Positions 5,917-31,503 of a stretch of 32,714 nucleotides of DNA are shown in pieces. Each line of letters starts with the position of its first letter. Position 1 is the first letter of the stretch. The stretch covers positions 1-32,714 of the forward strand of contig PLSP01000138.1 in assembly GCA_003165195.1 (NCBI GenBank), written 5' to 3'. The notes beneath the pieces were generated by a model, which saw only the letters and a program-made list of their open reading frames with translations, did no database searches and was not told the origin of the DNA. A program made the translations under genes and the position numbers. Origin of the DNA: Candidatus Bathyarchaeota archaeon (GTDB taxonomy: Archaea > Thermoproteota > Bathyarchaeia > Bathyarchaeales > Bathycorpusculaceae).

Positions 5917-7440
5917 ATGACCACTCAAACACCTAGGCGTATCCGCATTTTGGATACAACCTTACGAGATGGGGAACAAACCCCCGGCGTTTCTTTAACC
6001 GTCGACGACAAAATCGAAATTGCACAGCAACTAAGCAAGCTGGGCGTCGACGTTATTGAAGCAGGTTTTCCAAGCTCTTCAGATGGTGAAAAAAAAGTCG
6101 TTAGAGACATCGCCAAACTGGGTTTAAACTCTGAAATCTGCGCCCTGTCCCGAGCAACTAAAGGAGATATAGACGCGGCTTTGGATTGTGATGTTGATTT
6201 AATCCATGTGTTTATTCCCACTTCGCCTGTACAGATGAAATACGCTGTCAACTTGACGCCTGAACAGGTGCTCTCCTCAGCGGTTGAATCCATTGAGTAC
6301 GTGAAGAAACACGGGGTCAAATGCGAGTTTTCACCAATGGATGCCACACGTTCAGAAATGCCCTTCTTACTGAAAGTTTGCGAAGCGGCACAAAAAGCAG
6401 GCATGGATAGCCTAAACGTCCCTGATACGGTAGGCATAATGATTCCTAAAACAATGATCACCTTAATTGAGAAAATAAAAACCGTTATCACAGTTCCTAT
6501 TAGCATTCATTGTCACGATGATTTTGGATTAGCAGTTGCGAACTCGCTGGCTGCGGTTGAAGCTGGCGCAGCTCAAGTTCACACCGCTGTAAACGGTTTA
6601 GGTGAACGAGCAGGTAACGCTTCCCTTGAAGAAGTTGTTGCAGCTCTGCATATCCTTTACAAGTTCAAAACTGGTGTAAACACACGGTTACTATATGTCA
6701 CATCAAGAATGGTTTCGACGCTGACGGGAATACCTGTGCAGGTTAACAAGGCAATTGTGGGTGAAAACGCCTTTGCGCATGAATCAGGCATCCATACTCG
6801 TGGGGTAACAGAGAAGCCACTTACCTTTGAGCCAATAGACCCTGAGTTGGTTGGTCGCACACGAAAACTGGTTGCAGGAAAACTTGCGGGGACACGAGGC
6901 ATCAAAGCGGAACTGGAAGAGGTCGGAATCCACCCGACGGAAGCGCAGCTAGACGAGATTGTACAGCGAGTAAAGCAGCTAGGGGACAAGGGCAAAATGG
7001 TGACAGACGCCGATTTGCTGGCATTGACCTCATCAGTAATGGGTCAGGTACTTGGGGAAGAAAAAATTATTGACTTATGTGACATGCAGGTAGTGACAGG
7101 CATCAAAGTTATCCCCACCGCATCAGTGCGTCTGATACTAGATGGCAAAGAATACATTGCAGCAGAAACCGGCGTGGGTCCAGTTGACGCAGTCCTGAAA
7201 GCCATAACCAAACTAACCAACAACCTAGAGATGATACGGCTAAAGGAGTATCGGCTCGAGGCAATTACAGGTGGTTCCAACGCGGTAGCGGAAGTTGTTA
7301 TAAAGGTTGAGGACGAAAAAGGCATCGTAGTTTCGGCGCGGGCAGCCAGTGAAGATATCGTGATGGCCAGCGTAGAGGCAATGATAAACGGTATAAACAA
7401 GCTCTTGCTTAAGAATCATAAACAGGGAAACAAACCGTGA
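5917..7440 (+). CDS. leuA: 2-isopropylmalate synthase (LeuA/CimA family), operon copy
   Basis: This enzyme condenses acetyl-CoA with 2-oxoisovalerate to open the leucine branch. It has 507 residues. The TIM-barrel catalytic domain carries [13 protein letters not shown] with Arg17 and Asp18, the metal ligands His198 and His200 in HCHDDFG, and [14 protein letters not shown]. The C-terminal LeuA dimer/regulatory domain spans roughly residues 385-500 (ASVRLILDG, GVGPVDAVLKAI). The IPTSPVQMKYAV and NVPDTVGIMIP segments look more like archaeal LeuA than CimA, from memory. Citramalate activity cannot be excluded because a second paralogue is encoded at 30019-31503. It overlaps pheA by four bases. 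Confidence 0.87.
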   Translation: MTTQTPRRIRILDTTLRDGEQTPGVSLTVDDKIEIAQQLSKLGVDVIEAGFPSSSDGEKKVVRDIAKLGLNSEICALSRATKGDIDAALDCDVDLIHVFIPTSPVQMKYAVNLTPEQVLSSAVESIEYVKKHGVKCEFSPMDATRSEMPFLLKVCEAAQKAGMDSLNVPDTVGIMIPKTMITLIEKIKTVITVPISIHCHDDFGLAVANSLAAVEAGAAQVHTAVNGLGERAGNASLEEVVAALHILYKFKTGVNTRLLYVTSRMVSTLTGIPVQVNKAIVGENAFAHESGIHTRGVTEKPLTFEPIDPELVGRTRKLVAGKLAGTRGIKAELEEVGIHPTEAQLDEIVQRVKQLGDKGKMVTDADLLALTSSVMGQVLGEEKIIDLCDMQVVTGIKVIPTASVRLILDGKEYIAAETGVGPVDAVLKAITKLTNNLEMIRLKEYRLEAITGGSNAVAEVVIKVEDEKGIVVSARAASEDIVMASVEAMINGINKLLLKNHKQGNKP

Positions 7441-18663: not shown

Positions 18664-19911
18664 TTACTTGGATGTCCTTAATGAGTTTTTAATAAGAGCG
18701 AGAGCTTTTTCGCGTTCGCTCCAATCTACAAACAACAGAATACTTGATGTTATGGTGAGTATGCCAGAAATGTTTATGCCTTTGACTCGGAGATCTTCGC
18801 TGATTTTTCCAATGATACCGTGGGTTTCCTCTAAGCCGACACCGCTGGTTTGAATGAAGACCAAATCTTTCTTGACAGCCATCGCAATTGTTTCTTTGTT
18901 GCTTTTGGTTATTTCATGTATCTGGTTGAAGAGGGTATCGAGGTTTTTTTCTTGGGAAACATAGAGTATAACTGAGTTTGTGTTCATTGACATACCCAGA
19001 AGGGTTGACTGCTGTTTGGTTTTCTCCACCATTTCCTGGATGATTTGCGGATTAGCGGATATGCCATTGCCGATAACAGTGATTTCAGCAACTGGGAAAG
19101 TATGAGCTATTTCAGCGTCAAGGTCACTGGCTAAGGCGCCTGTGATTACCGTGCCCTCCTTAGAGAGGTCGCCGTGGACACTGTTGATGACACGTACGTC
19201 GATGCCTTCTGGCTTGTACTTCAATGCTTTACTATGGATGAATTTGGCTCCTGAATCTGCTAAGCCCACTAAGGTTTTCACGTCGATTTCTTTCAGCCTC
19301 TGGGGGTTGCTTACCACTTTAGGGTCACCAGACATTATCCCATCTGCGTCTGTAACTATGACAATTTCGTCAGCGCCCAATGCCTCAGCTAATATAAATG
19401 CGGTTGTGTCGCTTCCGCCTCTGCCCAACGTGGTGATTTTGCCGTCTTTGGTTTTGCCCAAAAAACCCGCAACCACTGGGATGACGCCCCTATCCATGAC
19501 GGGTAAAATGCAGTCGCTAATGTTTCTCTCGCAGTCTTTGCGGATAGGATTGGCGTTTTGGAATGAGTCGTCGGTGATTATTGGCCAAGATTTGTCCGTG
19601 GGGTCGAAGTAGCAGGATTCAACGCCGTTAGCGTTCAAAGTGGCTGAGAACATTCGGATACTTGTGCGTTCGCCCATAGAGAGAATGTCATCCAGATCTT
19701 TTTTCTGCAGTTTTCCCTTTGAAGCATTTTTCGCTGTCGTCAAAAGGACATCAGTTGTTTTACCCATAGCGGAAACTACAACAGCGACTCGTGTGCCCTT
19801 CTTGGCTTCATTGACCACGGCAAGCGCCGCTTTCTGTAGCCTTTCGTGATCCGCTAGGCTTGAACCGCCGAATTTAACAACAATTTTTCTGTCAGAGGTA
19901 GTTTTGTCCAT
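18664..19911 (-). CDS. aspartate kinase
   Basis: This phosphorylates aspartate, the first step to aspartate semialdehyde. The 415 residues start with IVVKFGGSSLADHERL (10-25), and the kinase domain includes TTLGRGGSDTTAFILAEALGA and VTDADGIMSGDPKVV. Two ACT domains follow (about 270-415), pointing to allosteric control. As the first gene of the aromatic operon it feeds the amino sugar synthase. No aspartate semialdehyde dehydrogenase, homoserine dehydrogenase or threonine gene is nearby, so it may be dedicated to aromatics; its effector ligand (threonine, lysine or an aromatic amino acid) cannot be told. Confidence 0.93.
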   Translation of the reverse strand: MDKTTSDRKIVVKFGGSSLADHERLQKAALAVVNEAKKGTRVAVVVSAMGKTTDVLLTTAKNASKGKLQKKDLDDILSMGERTSIRMFSATLNANGVESCYFDPTDKSWPIITDDSFQNANPIRKDCERNISDCILPVMDRGVIPVVAGFLGKTKDGKITTLGRGGSDTTAFILAEALGADEIVIVTDADGIMSGDPKVVSNPQRLKEIDVKTLVGLADSGAKFIHSKALKYKPEGIDVRVINSVHGDLSKEGTVITGALASDLDAEIAHTFPVAEITVIGNGISANPQIIQEMVEKTKQQSTLLGMSMNTNSVILYVSQEKNLDTLFNQIHEITKSNKETIAMAVKKDLVFIQTSGVGLEETHGIIGKISEDLRVKGINISGILTITSSILLFVDWSEREKALALIKNSLRTSK

Positions 19912-19968
19912 TTTTTACACCCATGCTTTGCCCAGAACTCTGCTAAAAAATTTTTAGTCCTGGGCTTA

Positions 19969-19978
19969 AGTATAAAAT
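19969..19978 (-). promoter_or_regulatory. TATA box of the aromatic operon
   Basis: On the minus strand the sequence reads ATTTTATACT, a good archaeal TATA box about 60 nt before the aspartate kinase ATG. Transcription would start near 19945, leaving a leader of about 35 nt. No later strong promoter is visible inside the operon, where genes overlap or nearly touch. Confidence 0.55.
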
Positions 19979-19984
19979 TGATAA

Positions 19985-20425
19985 AAATAATAGCCGAAGC
20001 TCTGGAAACAGGATGCATTGACTTCTTTCTTGAATTGAGACTTAGCCATTGAAGCTTCGAACCTATGCTCATCTGTCATAGCTCAAAAAATATAAGCATT
20101 TCTGTGTTTAGACTCCGAAAATACAAGTTCGAGCGAACCAATTCTTTAGAAATAGCTTCTTCCTTCACGTTTAGAGATATCAAGCCTCTTAATCGGGCAT
20201 TTTCTTTCAAGTTGGTATTCGTTCATTGTATTAACTTGCAAACACAAAATATTCATTTTTTATTTAGTATCAAATGATTTTTATGATAACTTGAAAGCGT
20301 GAACAAAAAAAATTACAAAAAGAAAAATCAGTTATCCACTAACGGCTTTGGAAGAATATGAATGTGGTATTAAATCCACACAATTAAACAGCCTTTTTTA
20401 GGGATTGACCGATTTTTTGCCTAAC
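19985..20425. other. 440-bp AT-rich region without a recognised gene
   Basis: Between the aromatic operon promoter and the cysteine-rich small gene I see no supported coding frame. A 70-codon plus-strand frame at 20065-20277 has low-complexity composition and no ribosome-binding site. No tRNA, snoRNA-like box pair or repeat array was found. Confidence 0.4.
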
Positions 20426-20443
20426 ATTTTAGTTAGCTAAAAT
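20426..20443 (-). terminator. hairpin after the cysteine-rich small gene
   Basis: ATTTTAG and CTAAAAT form a perfect 7-bp stem with a 4-nt loop, about 20 nt after the stop of the small gene on the minus strand. It may end or protect that transcript. Confidence 0.35.
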
Positions 20444-20463
20444 TTAAAACGGTGGAGGAGTTT

Positions 20464-20586
20464 TTAAGCCCAAACCTTGGTGCGGATACTGCCACATTGG
20501 ATACAGCAATTTAGGCATTCTCCCTTATCGCTTATCTTTAGCTCGGTTTCTGCGCAACCGCAATGGCATTTATCGTTGTTCATCAT
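20464..20586 (-). CDS. 40-residue cysteine-rich protein, probable metal binder
   Basis: This short ORF encodes 40 residues with seven cysteines: KCHCGCAETELK at the N-terminal end (Cys7, 9, 11) and ECLNCCIQCGS (Cys24, 27, 28, 31). A CxCxC cluster followed by CxxCCxxC, with a His at position 8, suggests a zinc-ribbon or metallothionein-like fold that binds one or two metal ions. The ORF starts with two ATG codons, with GGAG about ten bases upstream. It is not in any operon. I recognise no named family. The cysteine density and the ribosome-binding site argue that it is real. Confidence 0.6.
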   Translation of the reverse strand: MMNNDKCHCGCAETELKISDKGECLNCCIQCGSIRTKVWA

Positions 20587-20655
20587 ATATTTTCATCTCC
20601 AATTTACTTTAAGGCAGAGTTTTACATGAACCAAAAATTTGAAGTTCAGCGTGGC

Positions 20656-20772
20656 TTATTGCTCGAAACAGTAAGGACACAAAACCAGTTTTTTGGGTAT
20701 CTTGTTTACGCTGTCGTTTATTAATAAATAATATAGGTTAAATATATCTCTTTCTAAATGTCTCTTTCTTTT
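20656..20772 (-). pseudogene. possible remnant ending in a CPYC motif
   Basis: A minus-strand frame open for 38 codons ends in KKLVLCPYCFEQ and a stop, resembling half of a zinc ribbon. It has no ATG, GTG or TTG start in a usable position after the preceding in-frame stop. It may be a worn gene fragment or chance. The surrounding 290 bp otherwise look non-coding. Confidence 0.2.
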
Positions 20773-20874
20773 TTAGGCTTAATCTCAAGCGTTTCAGGTA
20801 CTGCCATTAAAAATGGCGTAATGATTGGAATGATTACGCTAAAAATCAAGCAACAAGAGTAGTGTATGCGCAAA

Positions 20875-21216
20875 TTAAGTGTGTATATCCTCATGTTTCC
20901 ATTCTGCCACATGCTCAAGTTCATGTTCTAAAGCATCCGCTAAGGGTACTGAATCTTTAATAAGAATAATCATGTGTCCCTCGAACTCAAAAGTGCAAGC
21001 CTCAATCAACTTGTTATCAAAATCTACTCCGTACTCCTGAACTCTGGTATCGGTAACTGCCTTGTTTTTCTGCAATAGTTTCACTGTTGAAATAAAAGCT
21101 TTATCCGTTAAAGAGTAAGCGTAAATCTCCGGCAGTGGCTTATCTGAAACCTTCTTCCAAGCTGAGCACAGAACCTTGTTAGAGATTACTTTGGCGTCTT
21201 TGATTTCTGGCTTCAT
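20875..21216 (-). CDS. small protein with HExxH motif, possible metallopeptidase-like
   Basis: This protein of 113 residues (from the ATG) ends in ADALEHELEHVAEWKHEDIHT. HELEH matches the HExxH zinc-binding motif, with further His and Glu residues in the last ten positions that could act as a third ligand. The motif sits almost at the C-terminus, unlike in full zincins, where more domain follows. The N-terminal part (VISNKVLCSAW, PLPEIYAYSLTDKAF) is not recognised. A TTG four codons upstream is an alternative start. It is divergent from the inositol phosphatase gene. Activity is unproven; a degenerate or minimal protease is equally possible. Confidence 0.55.
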   Translation of the reverse strand: MKPEIKDAKVISNKVLCSAWKKVSDKPLPEIYAYSLTDKAFISTVKLLQKNKAVTDTRVQEYGVDFDNKLIEACTFEFEGHMIILIKDSVPLADALEHELEHVAEWKHEDIHT

Positions 21217-21321
21217 AACACCTTGCAATCGAACGTGTCTTAAAAGTTTAACCTACCTAAAAAAATCAAAGGAGCGGTAAAGTCTTTATCAAGATCTGTA
21301 ACATAATTAAAACAACGCGAA

Positions 21322-23277: not shown

Positions 23278-23433
23278 GTGAAACTTGTAACCGTTCTATT
23301 ACCAGAAGCGTATCTGGAAGGCTTAGATGAGTTAGTTCATGCAAACATGTATCCTAGTAGAAGCAGCGTAATCAGGTCAGCCGTGCGGGACCTGCTAAAG
23401 AAAGAGCTTTGGGAACAAAAACGCGGAAGATAA
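23278..23433 (+). CDS. ribbon-helix-helix (CopG/Arc-type) DNA-binding protein
   Basis: This 51-residue protein is too short for most gene callers but has all the marks of a ribbon-helix-helix regulator: a short N-terminal strand (MKLVTVLLPEAYLEGL), then DELVHANMYPSRSSVIRSAVRDLLKKELW, which gives two helices with the conserved S-R-S/A-x-x-I-R turn. It would bind DNA as a dimer through the strand. The GTG start is preceded by GAGGAGG, one of the strongest ribosome-binding sites in the window. TATA-like TTATAT and TTATAA elements lie 40-55 bp upstream. It converges with pyrF, with only four bases between the stops. No toxin is adjacent, so it is probably a regulator rather than an antitoxin. Confidence 0.82.
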   Translation: MKLVTVLLPEAYLEGLDELVHANMYPSRSSVIRSAVRDLLKKELWEQKRGR

Positions 23434-24297: not shown

Positions 24298-24834
24298 TTA
24301 GACGCCATCTTCATTCTTTCTTTTTGTTATATCTAAAAACATTAGTTTCTGTTTTTGTTTCTCTTGTTTTGGTGCTAAAGTAAAGCCATACTGGTCATAA
24401 AACTCTATTGCTGAATCTATAGCATCCACCACCAAAAATCTGCAACCTAATATTTTCGATAACTTAACTGCTCTATCAAAACAAAAATCACAAATGAAAG
24501 TACCAATACCGTTACGTTTATAATCATTAGAAACCGCTAATCCACCAATCAAAAGAGATGGGTAACTTCCAATATGCTTAGGCAACCTGTCTTCAGATTT
24601 CATCTTTTCCTTATTGAGATGCCCCATGCACAACGTTGCAAACCCTATTAACTTTGACCTATAATTGAAAACGTATGTAATACCAAGACATTGTTCTTGG
24701 AACATGAAAGCTTCTTTTTGGATAAAATCATCTATGTCTTTATTACTGCAACTAAACCCTTTAACATCATCGTTTTCATCTAAAATTTTGGGCTTAGATA
24801 AATCCTCAAGCTTAAGGACTGGCTGAGCTGACAT
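24298..24834 (-). CDS. GNAT-family N-acetyltransferase, TacT-like
   Basis: About 178 residues with the GNAT core: YVFNYRSKLIGFATLCMG (strand 2-4 region), LLIGGLAVSNDYKRNGIGTFICDFC with the acetyl-CoA-binding R-x-x-G-x-G type loop, and VVDAIDSAIEFYDQYGFTL. The N-terminal GFSCSNKDIDDFIQKEAFMFQEQCLGITYV resembles the region before the core in TacT-type toxins, which acetylate aminoacyl-tRNA. The ATG at 24834 was preferred; a TTG at 24846 sits immediately after the upstream stop. It forms a two-gene unit with the 45-residue ORF, which could be its antitoxin although it is not an obvious ribbon-helix-helix protein. A housekeeping acetyltransferase is the alternative. Confidence 0.75.
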   Translation of the reverse strand: MSAQPVLKLEDLSKPKILDENDDVKGFSCSNKDIDDFIQKEAFMFQEQCLGITYVFNYRSKLIGFATLCMGHLNKEKMKSEDRLPKHIGSYPSLLIGGLAVSNDYKRNGIGTFICDFCFDRAVKLSKILGCRFLVVDAIDSAIEFYDQYGFTLAPKQEKQKQKLMFLDITKRKNEDGV

Positions 24835-24846
24835 GAAACAATTCAA

Positions 24847-24984
24847 TTATAGAGGGCAATTCTTAAAAGTTTCCGTTGCCCTTTTGTATCGTGTTTCATC
24901 TGCTTCAGTTGGCTTCCGCTTGATTTCCTTCTGAACAGCTTTCCACTGTTCTGAATCAAGTACGGGAATAGGTTTGGGCAACAT
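24847..24984 (-). CDS. 45-residue charged protein, partner of the GNAT gene
   Basis: A 45-residue ORF rich in Lys, Arg and Glu: it opens MLPKPIPVLDSEQW, continues as a helical segment (KAVQKEIKRKPTEADETRY) and ends KNCPL. AGGTGA five bases before the ATG is a good ribosome-binding site. Its stop abuts or lies 12 bases before the acetyltransferase start, so the two are probably translated together. I do not recognise a named family. Small size, charge, tight coupling and the palindromic array upstream make an antitoxin role plausible; this is inference. Confidence 0.55.
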   Translation of the reverse strand: MLPKPIPVLDSEQWKAVQKEIKRKPTEADETRYKRATETFKNCPL

Positions 24985-25037
24985 TTTGTTCACCTACGTT
25001 CCTGGAACTATCAATTTTACTAACTAACAATAATCGG

Positions 25038-25050
25038 TTAATTAAATTTT
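25038..25050 (-). promoter_or_regulatory. probable TATA box of the GNAT module
   Basis: On the minus strand an AAAATTTAATTAA element lies about 60 nt before the ATG of the 45-residue gene. The operator array touches its upstream side, so a bound repressor would compete with TBP/TFB. Confidence 0.35.
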
Positions 25051-25100
25051 GTGTACACAGTACACATAAAATGTGTAATTTACACGTATTCAGTGTGTAC
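25050..25100. promoter_or_regulatory. array of six TGTGTA/TACACA half-sites
   Basis: Half-sites fall at 25050-25055, 25054-25059, 25061-25066, 25072-25077, 25081-25086 (one mismatch) and 25094-25099, in alternating orientations. They form TGTGTACACA (perfect), ACACAT-AAA-ATGTGT (perfect 6-bp arms) and GTGTAA-T-TTACAC (perfect). Centres of the last three dyads are 10-11 bp apart, one helical turn. This is a strong operator-like array next to the promoter of the GNAT module. Confidence 0.65.
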
Positions 25101-30018: not shown

Positions 30019-31503
30019 TCATTGTTTGTTTTTGTTGTAGTCTGTTGTGAGCACGTTCATTGCGCTGATTACGGCTTCCATGCTTGCTTTAACGATGTCT
30101 TCGCGAACACTCATCGCTGTTGTTGTTCGGTCTCCTTTGCGCATGCGCACTACGACCTCAACCATAGCGTCTGTGCCGCCTGTGACTGCTTTGACCATGT
30201 AATGCTCCAGCGTGATAGGCACAACTTCTGCGATAGCGTCTTTCACAGCATTTATAGCTGCATCCACTGGACCGACCCCGACAGCCGCGCCCCAACAAAC
30301 CTTACCGTTTAATGAGAGCCTAACTGACGAGGTAGCTGTTATTTTGTCGCCGCCGACAAAGGTCATTTCTTCAAGTTTGATCGGTTTGTCTTGACCTAAG
30401 CCCATTATATTTTCAGCTATTGCAAGAACATCTGCGTCCATTACGGTTTTGCCTTTATCCCCTAAAGATTTGACTCTTAGGAAAATCTCTTTAAGTTGAT
30501 CTTCCTTTGGCTGCAGCCCCATTTTTTCTAATGCGGCTCGAATGCCATGTGTGCCTGAATGTTTTCCAGGCGCTATTCGACGTGTGGCGCCGACAAGTTC
30601 AGGAGCTATAGGCTCGTAACATAAGGGGTTTGCAAGCATGCCTTGCGTGTGTATGCCTGATTCATGCGTGAAGGCGTTTTCGCCCACGATTGCCTTGTTA
30701 GGTTGCACGTAGACCCCTGTCAGGCGGGAAACTAGCTGTGAGGTGCTGTAGAGCATCTCTGTTTTGATTTTTAGGTCCAGTTTGTAGAGGGATTTTAGGG
30801 TTATGACTACTTCTTCTAATGAGGCGTTGCCAGCTCGTTCACCCAGCCCATTTATAGTGACATGTGCTTCTTCTGCACCAGCTCCTAGAGCAGCAACTGT
30901 GTTGGCCACAGCCATTCCGAAATCGTTGTGGCAATGAACTCCTACTGGAAACTTTAGAGTTTCTGTTAGTCTAGAGAAGAACTCGGCTGATCGCTCTGGG
31001 GTTAAGATTCCCACGGTGTCGCAAGGAATAACTCTGTCTACGCCCGCACCGATGGCGGTTAAGAAAACCTTTGTTAAATAGTCAAAGTCTGAGCGGGTTG
31101 CGTCTTCAGCTAAAAGCTCAACAATTAGGCCATGGTCTTTGGCGTACTCAATACATTCGTCAGTGGCTTTCAGTATTTGCTCGCGGGTTTTGCGAAGTTT
31201 GCACTCGATATGTAGGTCAGAGGTTGGAATAATCATGCTTATGGTTGACGCACCGCTTTTCAGCACTGCGTCTATGTCGTTTATTGTTCCTCTTGCTGCA
31301 CTGGAAATTTGTGCTTTTAGCCCTTGTTTAGAAATCAGGCTTACTGCTTCCATTTCACCTTCCGAAACAGCGGCAAACCCAACTTCAATGATATCAACGC
31401 CTAACTCGTCTAGCCGCTGAGCAATTCTTAATTTGTTTTCAGGAACAAGAGATACTCCGGGTGTTTGTTCGCCGTCTCTTAGGGTGGTGTCTAAAAACTT
31501 CAC
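30019..31503 (-). CDS. 2-isopropylmalate/citramalate synthase family paralogue (CimA-like)
   Basis: This 494-residue paralogue of the operon LeuA has the same layout: [14 protein letters not shown] with Arg9, metal ligands His190 and His192 in [21 protein letters not shown], and a C-terminal regulatory domain (about 375-490). Segments such as [31 protein letters not shown] and [12 protein letters not shown] look closer to archaeal citramalate synthase than the operon copy does, from memory. Citramalate synthase would use pyruvate and acetyl-CoA to give 2-oxobutyrate via LeuCDB. Homocitrate/Aks-type function is another option. The GTG start has no ribosome-binding site of its own; a 10-codon ORF ends four bases before it. 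Confidence 0.85.

What the first reader, a model, noticed from the sequence alone, without database searches (positions are those of the whole stretch)
24298..25100. GNAT plus 45-residue protein under a helically phased palindromic operator: candidate atypical toxin-antitoxin system
A TacT-like acetyltransferase is directly preceded by a tightly coupled, charged 45-residue ORF that does not look like the usual ribbon-helix-helix partner. Just upstream of their promoter lie six TGTGTA/TACACA half-sites in 50 bp, with dyad centres one helical turn apart, typical of autoregulated modules. Together these suggest an undescribed archaeal GNAT toxin-antitoxin type.
Basis: partly seen in the sequence, partly recalled or inferred. 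Interest (0 to 1): 0.65.

Follow-up and report, generated by a model that had tools for sequence, protein, structure and literature searches.

The report
Archaeal toxin pair with mini antitoxin
This is a two-gene toxin-antitoxin-like module in an archaeon, in which an enzyme related to bacterial toxins that block protein synthesis is paired with a 45-residue partner that seems to be only the toxin-gripping tail of the usual antitoxin, without its DNA-binding half.

Summary
In detail: a TacT-like GNAT gene (24298-24834, -) follows a 45-codon ORF (24847-24984, -), below an array of five exact and one near-exact TGTGTA half-sites. The ORF is a real gene (dN/dS about 0.06) in a family absent from Pfam, NCBIfam and PADLOC. 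Every full-length close GNAT relative found (18 of 18 in this order, 12 or more across the phylum) has such a small gene directly upstream. The small gene often persists where the GNAT is broken or missing; a full-length close GNAT without it was never seen. A modelled small-GNAT read-through chain matches only tRNA-acetylating GNAT toxins at the top of the PDB (38 best hits). By profile comparison the small family resembles the C-terminal toxin-binding tail of TacA (DUF1778), not its RHH domain. In the GNAT tree 34 of 35 mini-partner GNATs, archaeal plus some phage and Bacteroidales ones, fall on one side of a supported branch. The exact operator core occurs twice in the 3.16-Mb genome, upstream of the two intact modules, whose small proteins share only 24% identity; this suggests a common regulator. 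Short ORFs without DNA-binding domains before GNATs were noted in 2022 (PMC9177977) but not characterised. Toxicity, rescue and DNA binding are untested.

The parts
24298..24834 (-). GNAT acetyltransferase, TacT/AtaT/KacT-like putative toxin (178 aa from ATG 24834; catalytic-type Tyr146 in the FYxxxGF motif)
24847..24984 (-). 45-aa small protein, putative mini antitoxin (KPIPxL motif and two helices, resembles the C-terminal tail of TacA/DUF1778 without RHH)
24990..24995 (-). Shine-Dalgarno-like GGTGA in front of the small ORF
25032..25047 (-). TATA/BRE-like AAAATTTAATTAA directly below the operator; near-identical in the second module at G000:C59
   Evidence: consensus reading, not a promoter assay
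25050..25099 (.). operator array: TGTGTA/TACACA half-sites at 25050, 25054, 25061, 25072, 25094 (exact) and TACACG at 25081 (1 mismatch), ~11-bp phasing

Best explanation
The locus is a bicistronic type II-like toxin-antitoxin module. The GNAT is a TacT/AtaT-class toxin that would use acetyl-CoA and its FYxxxGF tyrosine to acetylate the amino group of aminoacyl-tRNA and stop translation (inferred). The 45-residue protein, made first from the shared mRNA, would bind and block the GNAT as the C-terminal tail of TacA does; it seems to be such a tail without the RHH DNA-binding domain (supported by profile similarity and tight linkage; binding not shown). Transcription is probably controlled through the 11-bp-phased operator by a separate regulator, or by the complex, and the same regulator serves a second diverged module in the genome (inferred from the shared operator).
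For: Linkage: independent searches with the small-protein profile and the GNAT profile land side by side across the phylum; in the order all 18 full-length GNATs have the small ORF upstream. One-sided decay: at least 7 loci keep an intact small gene beside a broken or truncated GNAT and about 7 keep it alone; no full-length close GNAT lacks it. Small ORF under purifying selection: dN 0.059, dS 0.95 against G021. Structure: the read-through fusion folded with pLDDT 77, pTM 0.78 (small-protein helices 81-85); the 38 best PDB matches are all TacT/AtaT/KacT/GmvT toxins, TMt 0.71-0.86, then a drop to ordinary GNATs. Catalytic Tyr146 invariant in 17 of 17 and aligned to the position occupied by Phe in the TacT crystals 5fvj/7f36. 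Small family vs TacA: the best alignment with the full-length profile lies on the tail; score 23.6 against a shuffled mean of 8.9, maximum 16.7 in 400; tail 22.6 vs RHH part 15.9. The tail alone is crystallised on the toxin in 7ak8, 7ak9, 6gtq, 9ils (titles). Operator core found exactly twice in the genome, 60-85 nt upstream of the two intact modules.
Against: No toxicity, rescue, binding or tRNA data. HHalign probability for the tail match is only 34-64%, and 5% for the Nitrososphaeria-like subset taken alone. Chain contacts in the model could not be inspected (no coordinates or PAE), and the alignment behind it had 8 rows. Some GNAT breaks could be MAG assembly errors. One full-length GNAT (G009:C84) has a small ORF without a usual start codon.
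Confidence: 0.74

Rival explanations
1. The GNAT is an ordinary protein or small-molecule acetyltransferase and the 45-aa protein a subunit or activator; there is no toxicity.
For: GNAT proteins have many functions; PMC9177977 itself left this open for GNATs outside the DUF1778 'true TA clade'.
Against: Top structural matches are exclusively tRNA-acetylating toxins; patchy distribution, low GC (33.7% vs 48% flanks) and absence at the conserved adenosine kinase-threonine dehydratase site in relatives; frequent loss of the enzyme with retention of the partner, the opposite of what an activator would show.
Confidence: 0.16
2. The small protein is a highly diverged RHH antitoxin that both neutralises the GNAT and binds the TGTGTA operator (classical autoregulated type II TA).
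For: Length and strand-helix-helix-like outline resemble a minimal RHH protein; an 11-bp-spaced half-site array is what RHH dimers bind (general knowledge of CopG/ParD-type operators).
Against: No RHH profile match; profile comparison prefers the TacA tail (22.6) to the RHH part (15.9); conserved prolines in the would-be ribbon (KPIPxL); alone it is predicted as two helices without a strand; two small proteins with only 24% identity share the same operator.
Confidence: 0.1

Closest known systems
TacAT / AtaRT / KacAT / GmvAT (GNAT-DUF1778 type II toxin-antitoxin systems)
   Same: Antitoxin-first bicistronic order, TacT-type GNAT fold and catalytic Tyr, antitoxin partner resembling the TacA C-terminal toxin-binding tail.
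   Different: Partner has no RHH/DUF1778 domain (45 vs about 90 aa); operator is not shown to be bound by the partner; GNATs form a separate side of the tree (98/90).
Short-ORF GNAT loci outside the 'true TA clade' (Bikmetov et al. 2022, PMC9177977)
   Same: Acetyltransferase preceded by a divergent short ORF without a predictable DNA-binding domain; very likely the same kind of locus.
   Different: That paper only mentions them and calls their antitoxin unidentified; its text defines no family, no tail similarity and no operator. Identity of the loci could not be checked, as supplements were not readable.
VcaAT (GNAT with DUF4065 antitoxin)
   Same: GNAT toxin with a replaced antitoxin.
   Different: DUF4065 is a different partner family, and that group lies inside the true TA clade (PMC9177977).

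Membership tests
GNAT-DUF1778 (TacAT-like) type II TA | TacT/AtaT/KacT-type GNAT fold | tested here: met
   38 best PDB structure matches are these toxins, E 9e-11 to 3e-8; phmmer hits
GNAT-DUF1778 (TacAT-like) type II TA | catalytic tyrosine in the FYxxxGF motif | tested here: met
   Tyr146 invariant in 17 GNATs, aligned with the mutated Phe of 5fvj/7f36
GNAT-DUF1778 (TacAT-like) type II TA | antitoxin with DUF1778/RHH domain | tested here: not met
   no PF08681 or RHH match for the small protein; no PF08681 hit in the genome (the search works in bacteria)
GNAT-DUF1778 (TacAT-like) type II TA | antitoxin C-terminal tail that binds the toxin | tested here: inconclusive
   profile similarity to the tail beyond 400 shuffles, HH probability 34-64%; contact not inspectable
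type II toxin-antitoxin | two genes in one operon, antitoxin first, conserved together | tested here: met
   18/18 order-level and at least 12 phylum-level full-length GNATs
type II toxin-antitoxin | toxin arrests growth and antitoxin protein neutralises it by binding | not testable with these tools
   needs expression and binding assays
type II toxin-antitoxin | transcription autoregulated by antitoxin or complex | tested here: inconclusive
   operator real but shared by two diverged modules; no DNA-binding domain found in the small protein
GNAT toxins | acetylation of aminoacyl-tRNA | not testable with these tools
   needs in vitro acetylation / LC-MS

The most novel reading that the evidence does not exclude
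A whole branch of GNAT toxins in archaea, phages and some bacteria is controlled by free-standing 'tail-only' antitoxins of about 45 residues, and in this genome transcription of two diverged modules is run in trans by one dedicated regulator through a shared 11-bp-phased operator, so that neutralisation and repression are split between different proteins.
Probability: 0.4. Interest if true: 0.7.

Novelty: new variant of a known kind. Interest (0 to 1): 0.58.

Why it matters
It gives a testable identity to the 'unidentified antitoxins' of GNATs outside the DUF1778 clade, would extend tRNA-acetylating toxin modules to Bathyarchaeia and other archaea, and shows how a two-domain antitoxin may be built from (or reduced to) a minimal neutralising peptide. 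It also separates neutralisation from repression, which are normally fused in type II antitoxins, and offers very small inhibitors of a well-studied toxin class.

Tried and rejected
Families: Pfam, NCBIfam, PADLOC, PHROGs and PDB profile searches gave nothing for the small protein; the weak hits (protein A, MPP10, DUF7623) are helical or repeat noise. Degenerate RHH: rejected as first choice. Viral origin of the archaeal modules: A1 and A6 scans of IMG/VR found no relative; the one viral contig found with the Nitrososphaeria-like query (L146) and a phage contig (L147) carry a GNAT with its own short upstream ORF, which the archaeal small-protein HMM does not detect. Small protein paired with another toxin: its orphan copies have no consistent new neighbour. 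RNA element in the region: no Rfam match. Operator conservation across the genus: only G000:C23, G000:C59 and partly G017:C42 have it; other modules have unrelated upstream sequence. Naming the organism by genome contigs: only related Bathyarchaeota/Crenarchaeota MAGs. Direction of evolution (RHH gained or lost): not decidable without an outgroup root.

Full report
What is there. The window is contig C23 of a 3.16-Mb archaeal MAG; its nearest named relatives are 'Crenarchaeota archaeon AS10tlH2TH_146' (same genus) and 'Candidatus Bathyarchaeota archaeon PFL10' (same family). On the minus strand, a 45-codon ORF (ATG 24984, TAA 24847-24849) with a GGTGA Shine-Dalgarno is followed after 12 nt by the ATG (24834) of a 178-aa GNAT. 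The GNAT matches Pfam GNAT models and its best PDB sequence relatives are toxins of TA systems. The small protein matches nothing in Pfam, NCBIfam, PADLOC or PHROGs.

The small ORF is a real gene, always with the GNAT. Against G021 it has dN 0.059 and dS 0.95. Searches of 151 relatives found the small protein and the GNAT side by side. Reading the ORFs showed that all 18 full-length GNATs of this order are directly preceded by a 45-50 aa protein with the same outline (K-P-x-I-P-x-L, helix, P/T turn, helix); one of them (G009:C84) has lost the usual start codon and one (G021:C101) is weak. An HMM-based table confirms a small gene 0-150 nt upstream of nearly every GNAT with E < 1e-20; exceptions are L088 (upstream not resolved), L093 (a lookalike ORF the HMM misses), the viral contigs L146/L147 (own short ORFs) and the disrupted G001:C50 copy; more distant GNATs (L099-L101) have none.

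Decay is one-sided. Intact small genes beside broken or truncated GNATs: G011, G015, G031, G001:C95, G001:C71, G026:C74, G009:C86. Intact small genes with no GNAT: for example G000:C78, G014:C2, G013:C15, G009:C97, G026:C20, G102/G117. In G001:C50 a transposase-like gene lies between the two. No full-length close GNAT was found without the small ORF. This is what a toxin and its antidote leave behind; assembly errors may explain some breaks.

Fold. The small ORF's TAA and the GNAT are in one frame, so the natural read-through (TAA as Gly) was folded with sequences that the tool permits: pLDDT 77, pTM 0.78, small-protein helices 11-22 and 27-39 at 81-85. Foldseek against the PDB gives 38 top hits that are all AtaT2, GmvT, TacT1-3, KacT, AtaT or, once (7byy), an entry titled only 'bacterial toxin' (TMt 0.71-0.86), then a drop to ordinary acetyltransferases. 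The small protein alone is predicted as two helices without a strand. Coordinates and PAE were not available, so the interface itself is not shown.

What the small protein resembles. 31 distinct DUF1778/TacA proteins were collected. HHalign of the small family against full-length TacA aligns it to the segment just after the RHH domain, the toxin-binding tail: score 23.6, against a mean of 8.9 and a maximum of 16.7 in 400 column-shuffled controls; against the tail alone 22.6 (shuffled maximum 15.0). The RHH part alone scores 15.9. Example: window PIPVLDSEQWKAVQKEIKRKPTEAD / TacA tail RRMVLNNESWERVMDALSHPPVPNE. HH probability is moderate (34-64%), so homology is probable, not proven. PDB titles show that the tail by itself is crystallised on TacT, AtaT and GmvT.

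Phylogeny. In a tree of 65 GNATs, 34 of the 35 mini-partner GNATs, including those of Bacteroides phage BS-TP1, Vibrio phage Ch457, a Parabacteroides plasmid and two viral contigs, fall on one side of a 98/90 branch; 30 DUF1778-linked ones fall on the other. The remaining mini-partner row, from a Latilactobacillus prophage, is a long branch that joins the DUF1778 side and cannot be placed. The root is unknown. The variant is therefore not purely archaeal.

Operator. Five exact TGTGTA/TACACA half-sites and one with a mismatch lie on an 11-bp lattice directly above an A/T-rich TATA-like box; shuffles do not give this. The palindrome TGTGTA-N5-TACACA occurs without mismatch at only two places in the genome: here and upstream of the second intact module at C59, where further half-sites are again 10-21 bp apart. 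The two promoters match at about 36 of 40 bases (my count) while the small proteins share 24% and the GNATs 31%; G017:C42 keeps part of it. Either promoter conversion or one shared regulator explains this; since the small protein has no recognised DNA-binding domain, a trans-acting regulator is the more likely reading. Other modules have different upstream sequences.

Mobility. The module is a low-GC patch (GNAT 33.7%, flanks 48%), and none of 12 relatives with the neighbouring adenosine-specific kinase carries it there.

Literature. Bikmetov et al. 2022 (PMC9177977) state that GNATs outside the DUF1778 'true TA clade' have divergent short ORFs upstream without DNA-binding domains and speculate about unidentified antitoxins. 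The present family very probably belongs there; no description of the family, its tail similarity or its operator was found in the held library.

Verdict. Shown: real gene pair, conserved linkage, one-sided loss, toxin-type fold and catalytic residue, unusual shared operator. Probable: small protein = tail-only antitoxin. Inferred and untested: toxicity, tRNA acetylation, neutralisation, who binds the operator.

Noticed in passing
window 23278-23433 (+): 51-aa RHH protein similar to CdrS/aCcr1 archaeal cell-cycle regulators (NCBIfam E 7e-9, below cut-off), next to pyrF; a candidate for binding the 11-bp-phased operator.
   Followed up: partly
L149 456-758 (G000:C59, directly downstream of the second module, convergent): 101-aa DeoR-type helix-turn-helix protein beside the second small-GNAT module.
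   Followed up: partly
L155 857-1009 and 1282-2496 (G000:C78): Orphan intact small protein followed by a 405-aa protein with an AbiEi-antitoxin C-terminal domain; no GNAT in between.
   Followed up: partly
L163 (G001:C50): A 501-aa transposase-like gene has inserted between a small gene and its GNAT; both flanking genes are damaged.
   Followed up: no
L118 204-1012 (Vibrio phage Ch457 ORF14e-ORF14d), L121 483-1300 (Latilactobacillus prophage beside integrase), L115 (Bacteroides phage BS-TP1), L114 (Parabacteroides plasmid): Phage or plasmid GNATs each preceded by a short ORF (two with an L-x-G-K-D-A-x-R-F motif), looking like cargo TA modules.
   Followed up: partly
L087, upstream of the small ORF (about -91 to -50): Three TGATATCA palindromes in front of a distant module, an unrelated operator-like array; L041, L089 and L092 have other palindromes.
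   Followed up: no
window 19901-21100: Second low-GC stretch (about 35%) between aspartokinase and a 117-aa unknown ORF (20875-21228, -).
   Followed up: no
window 5917-7440 (+) and 30019-31503 (-): Two 2-isopropylmalate/citramalate synthase-like genes in one window.
   Followed up: no
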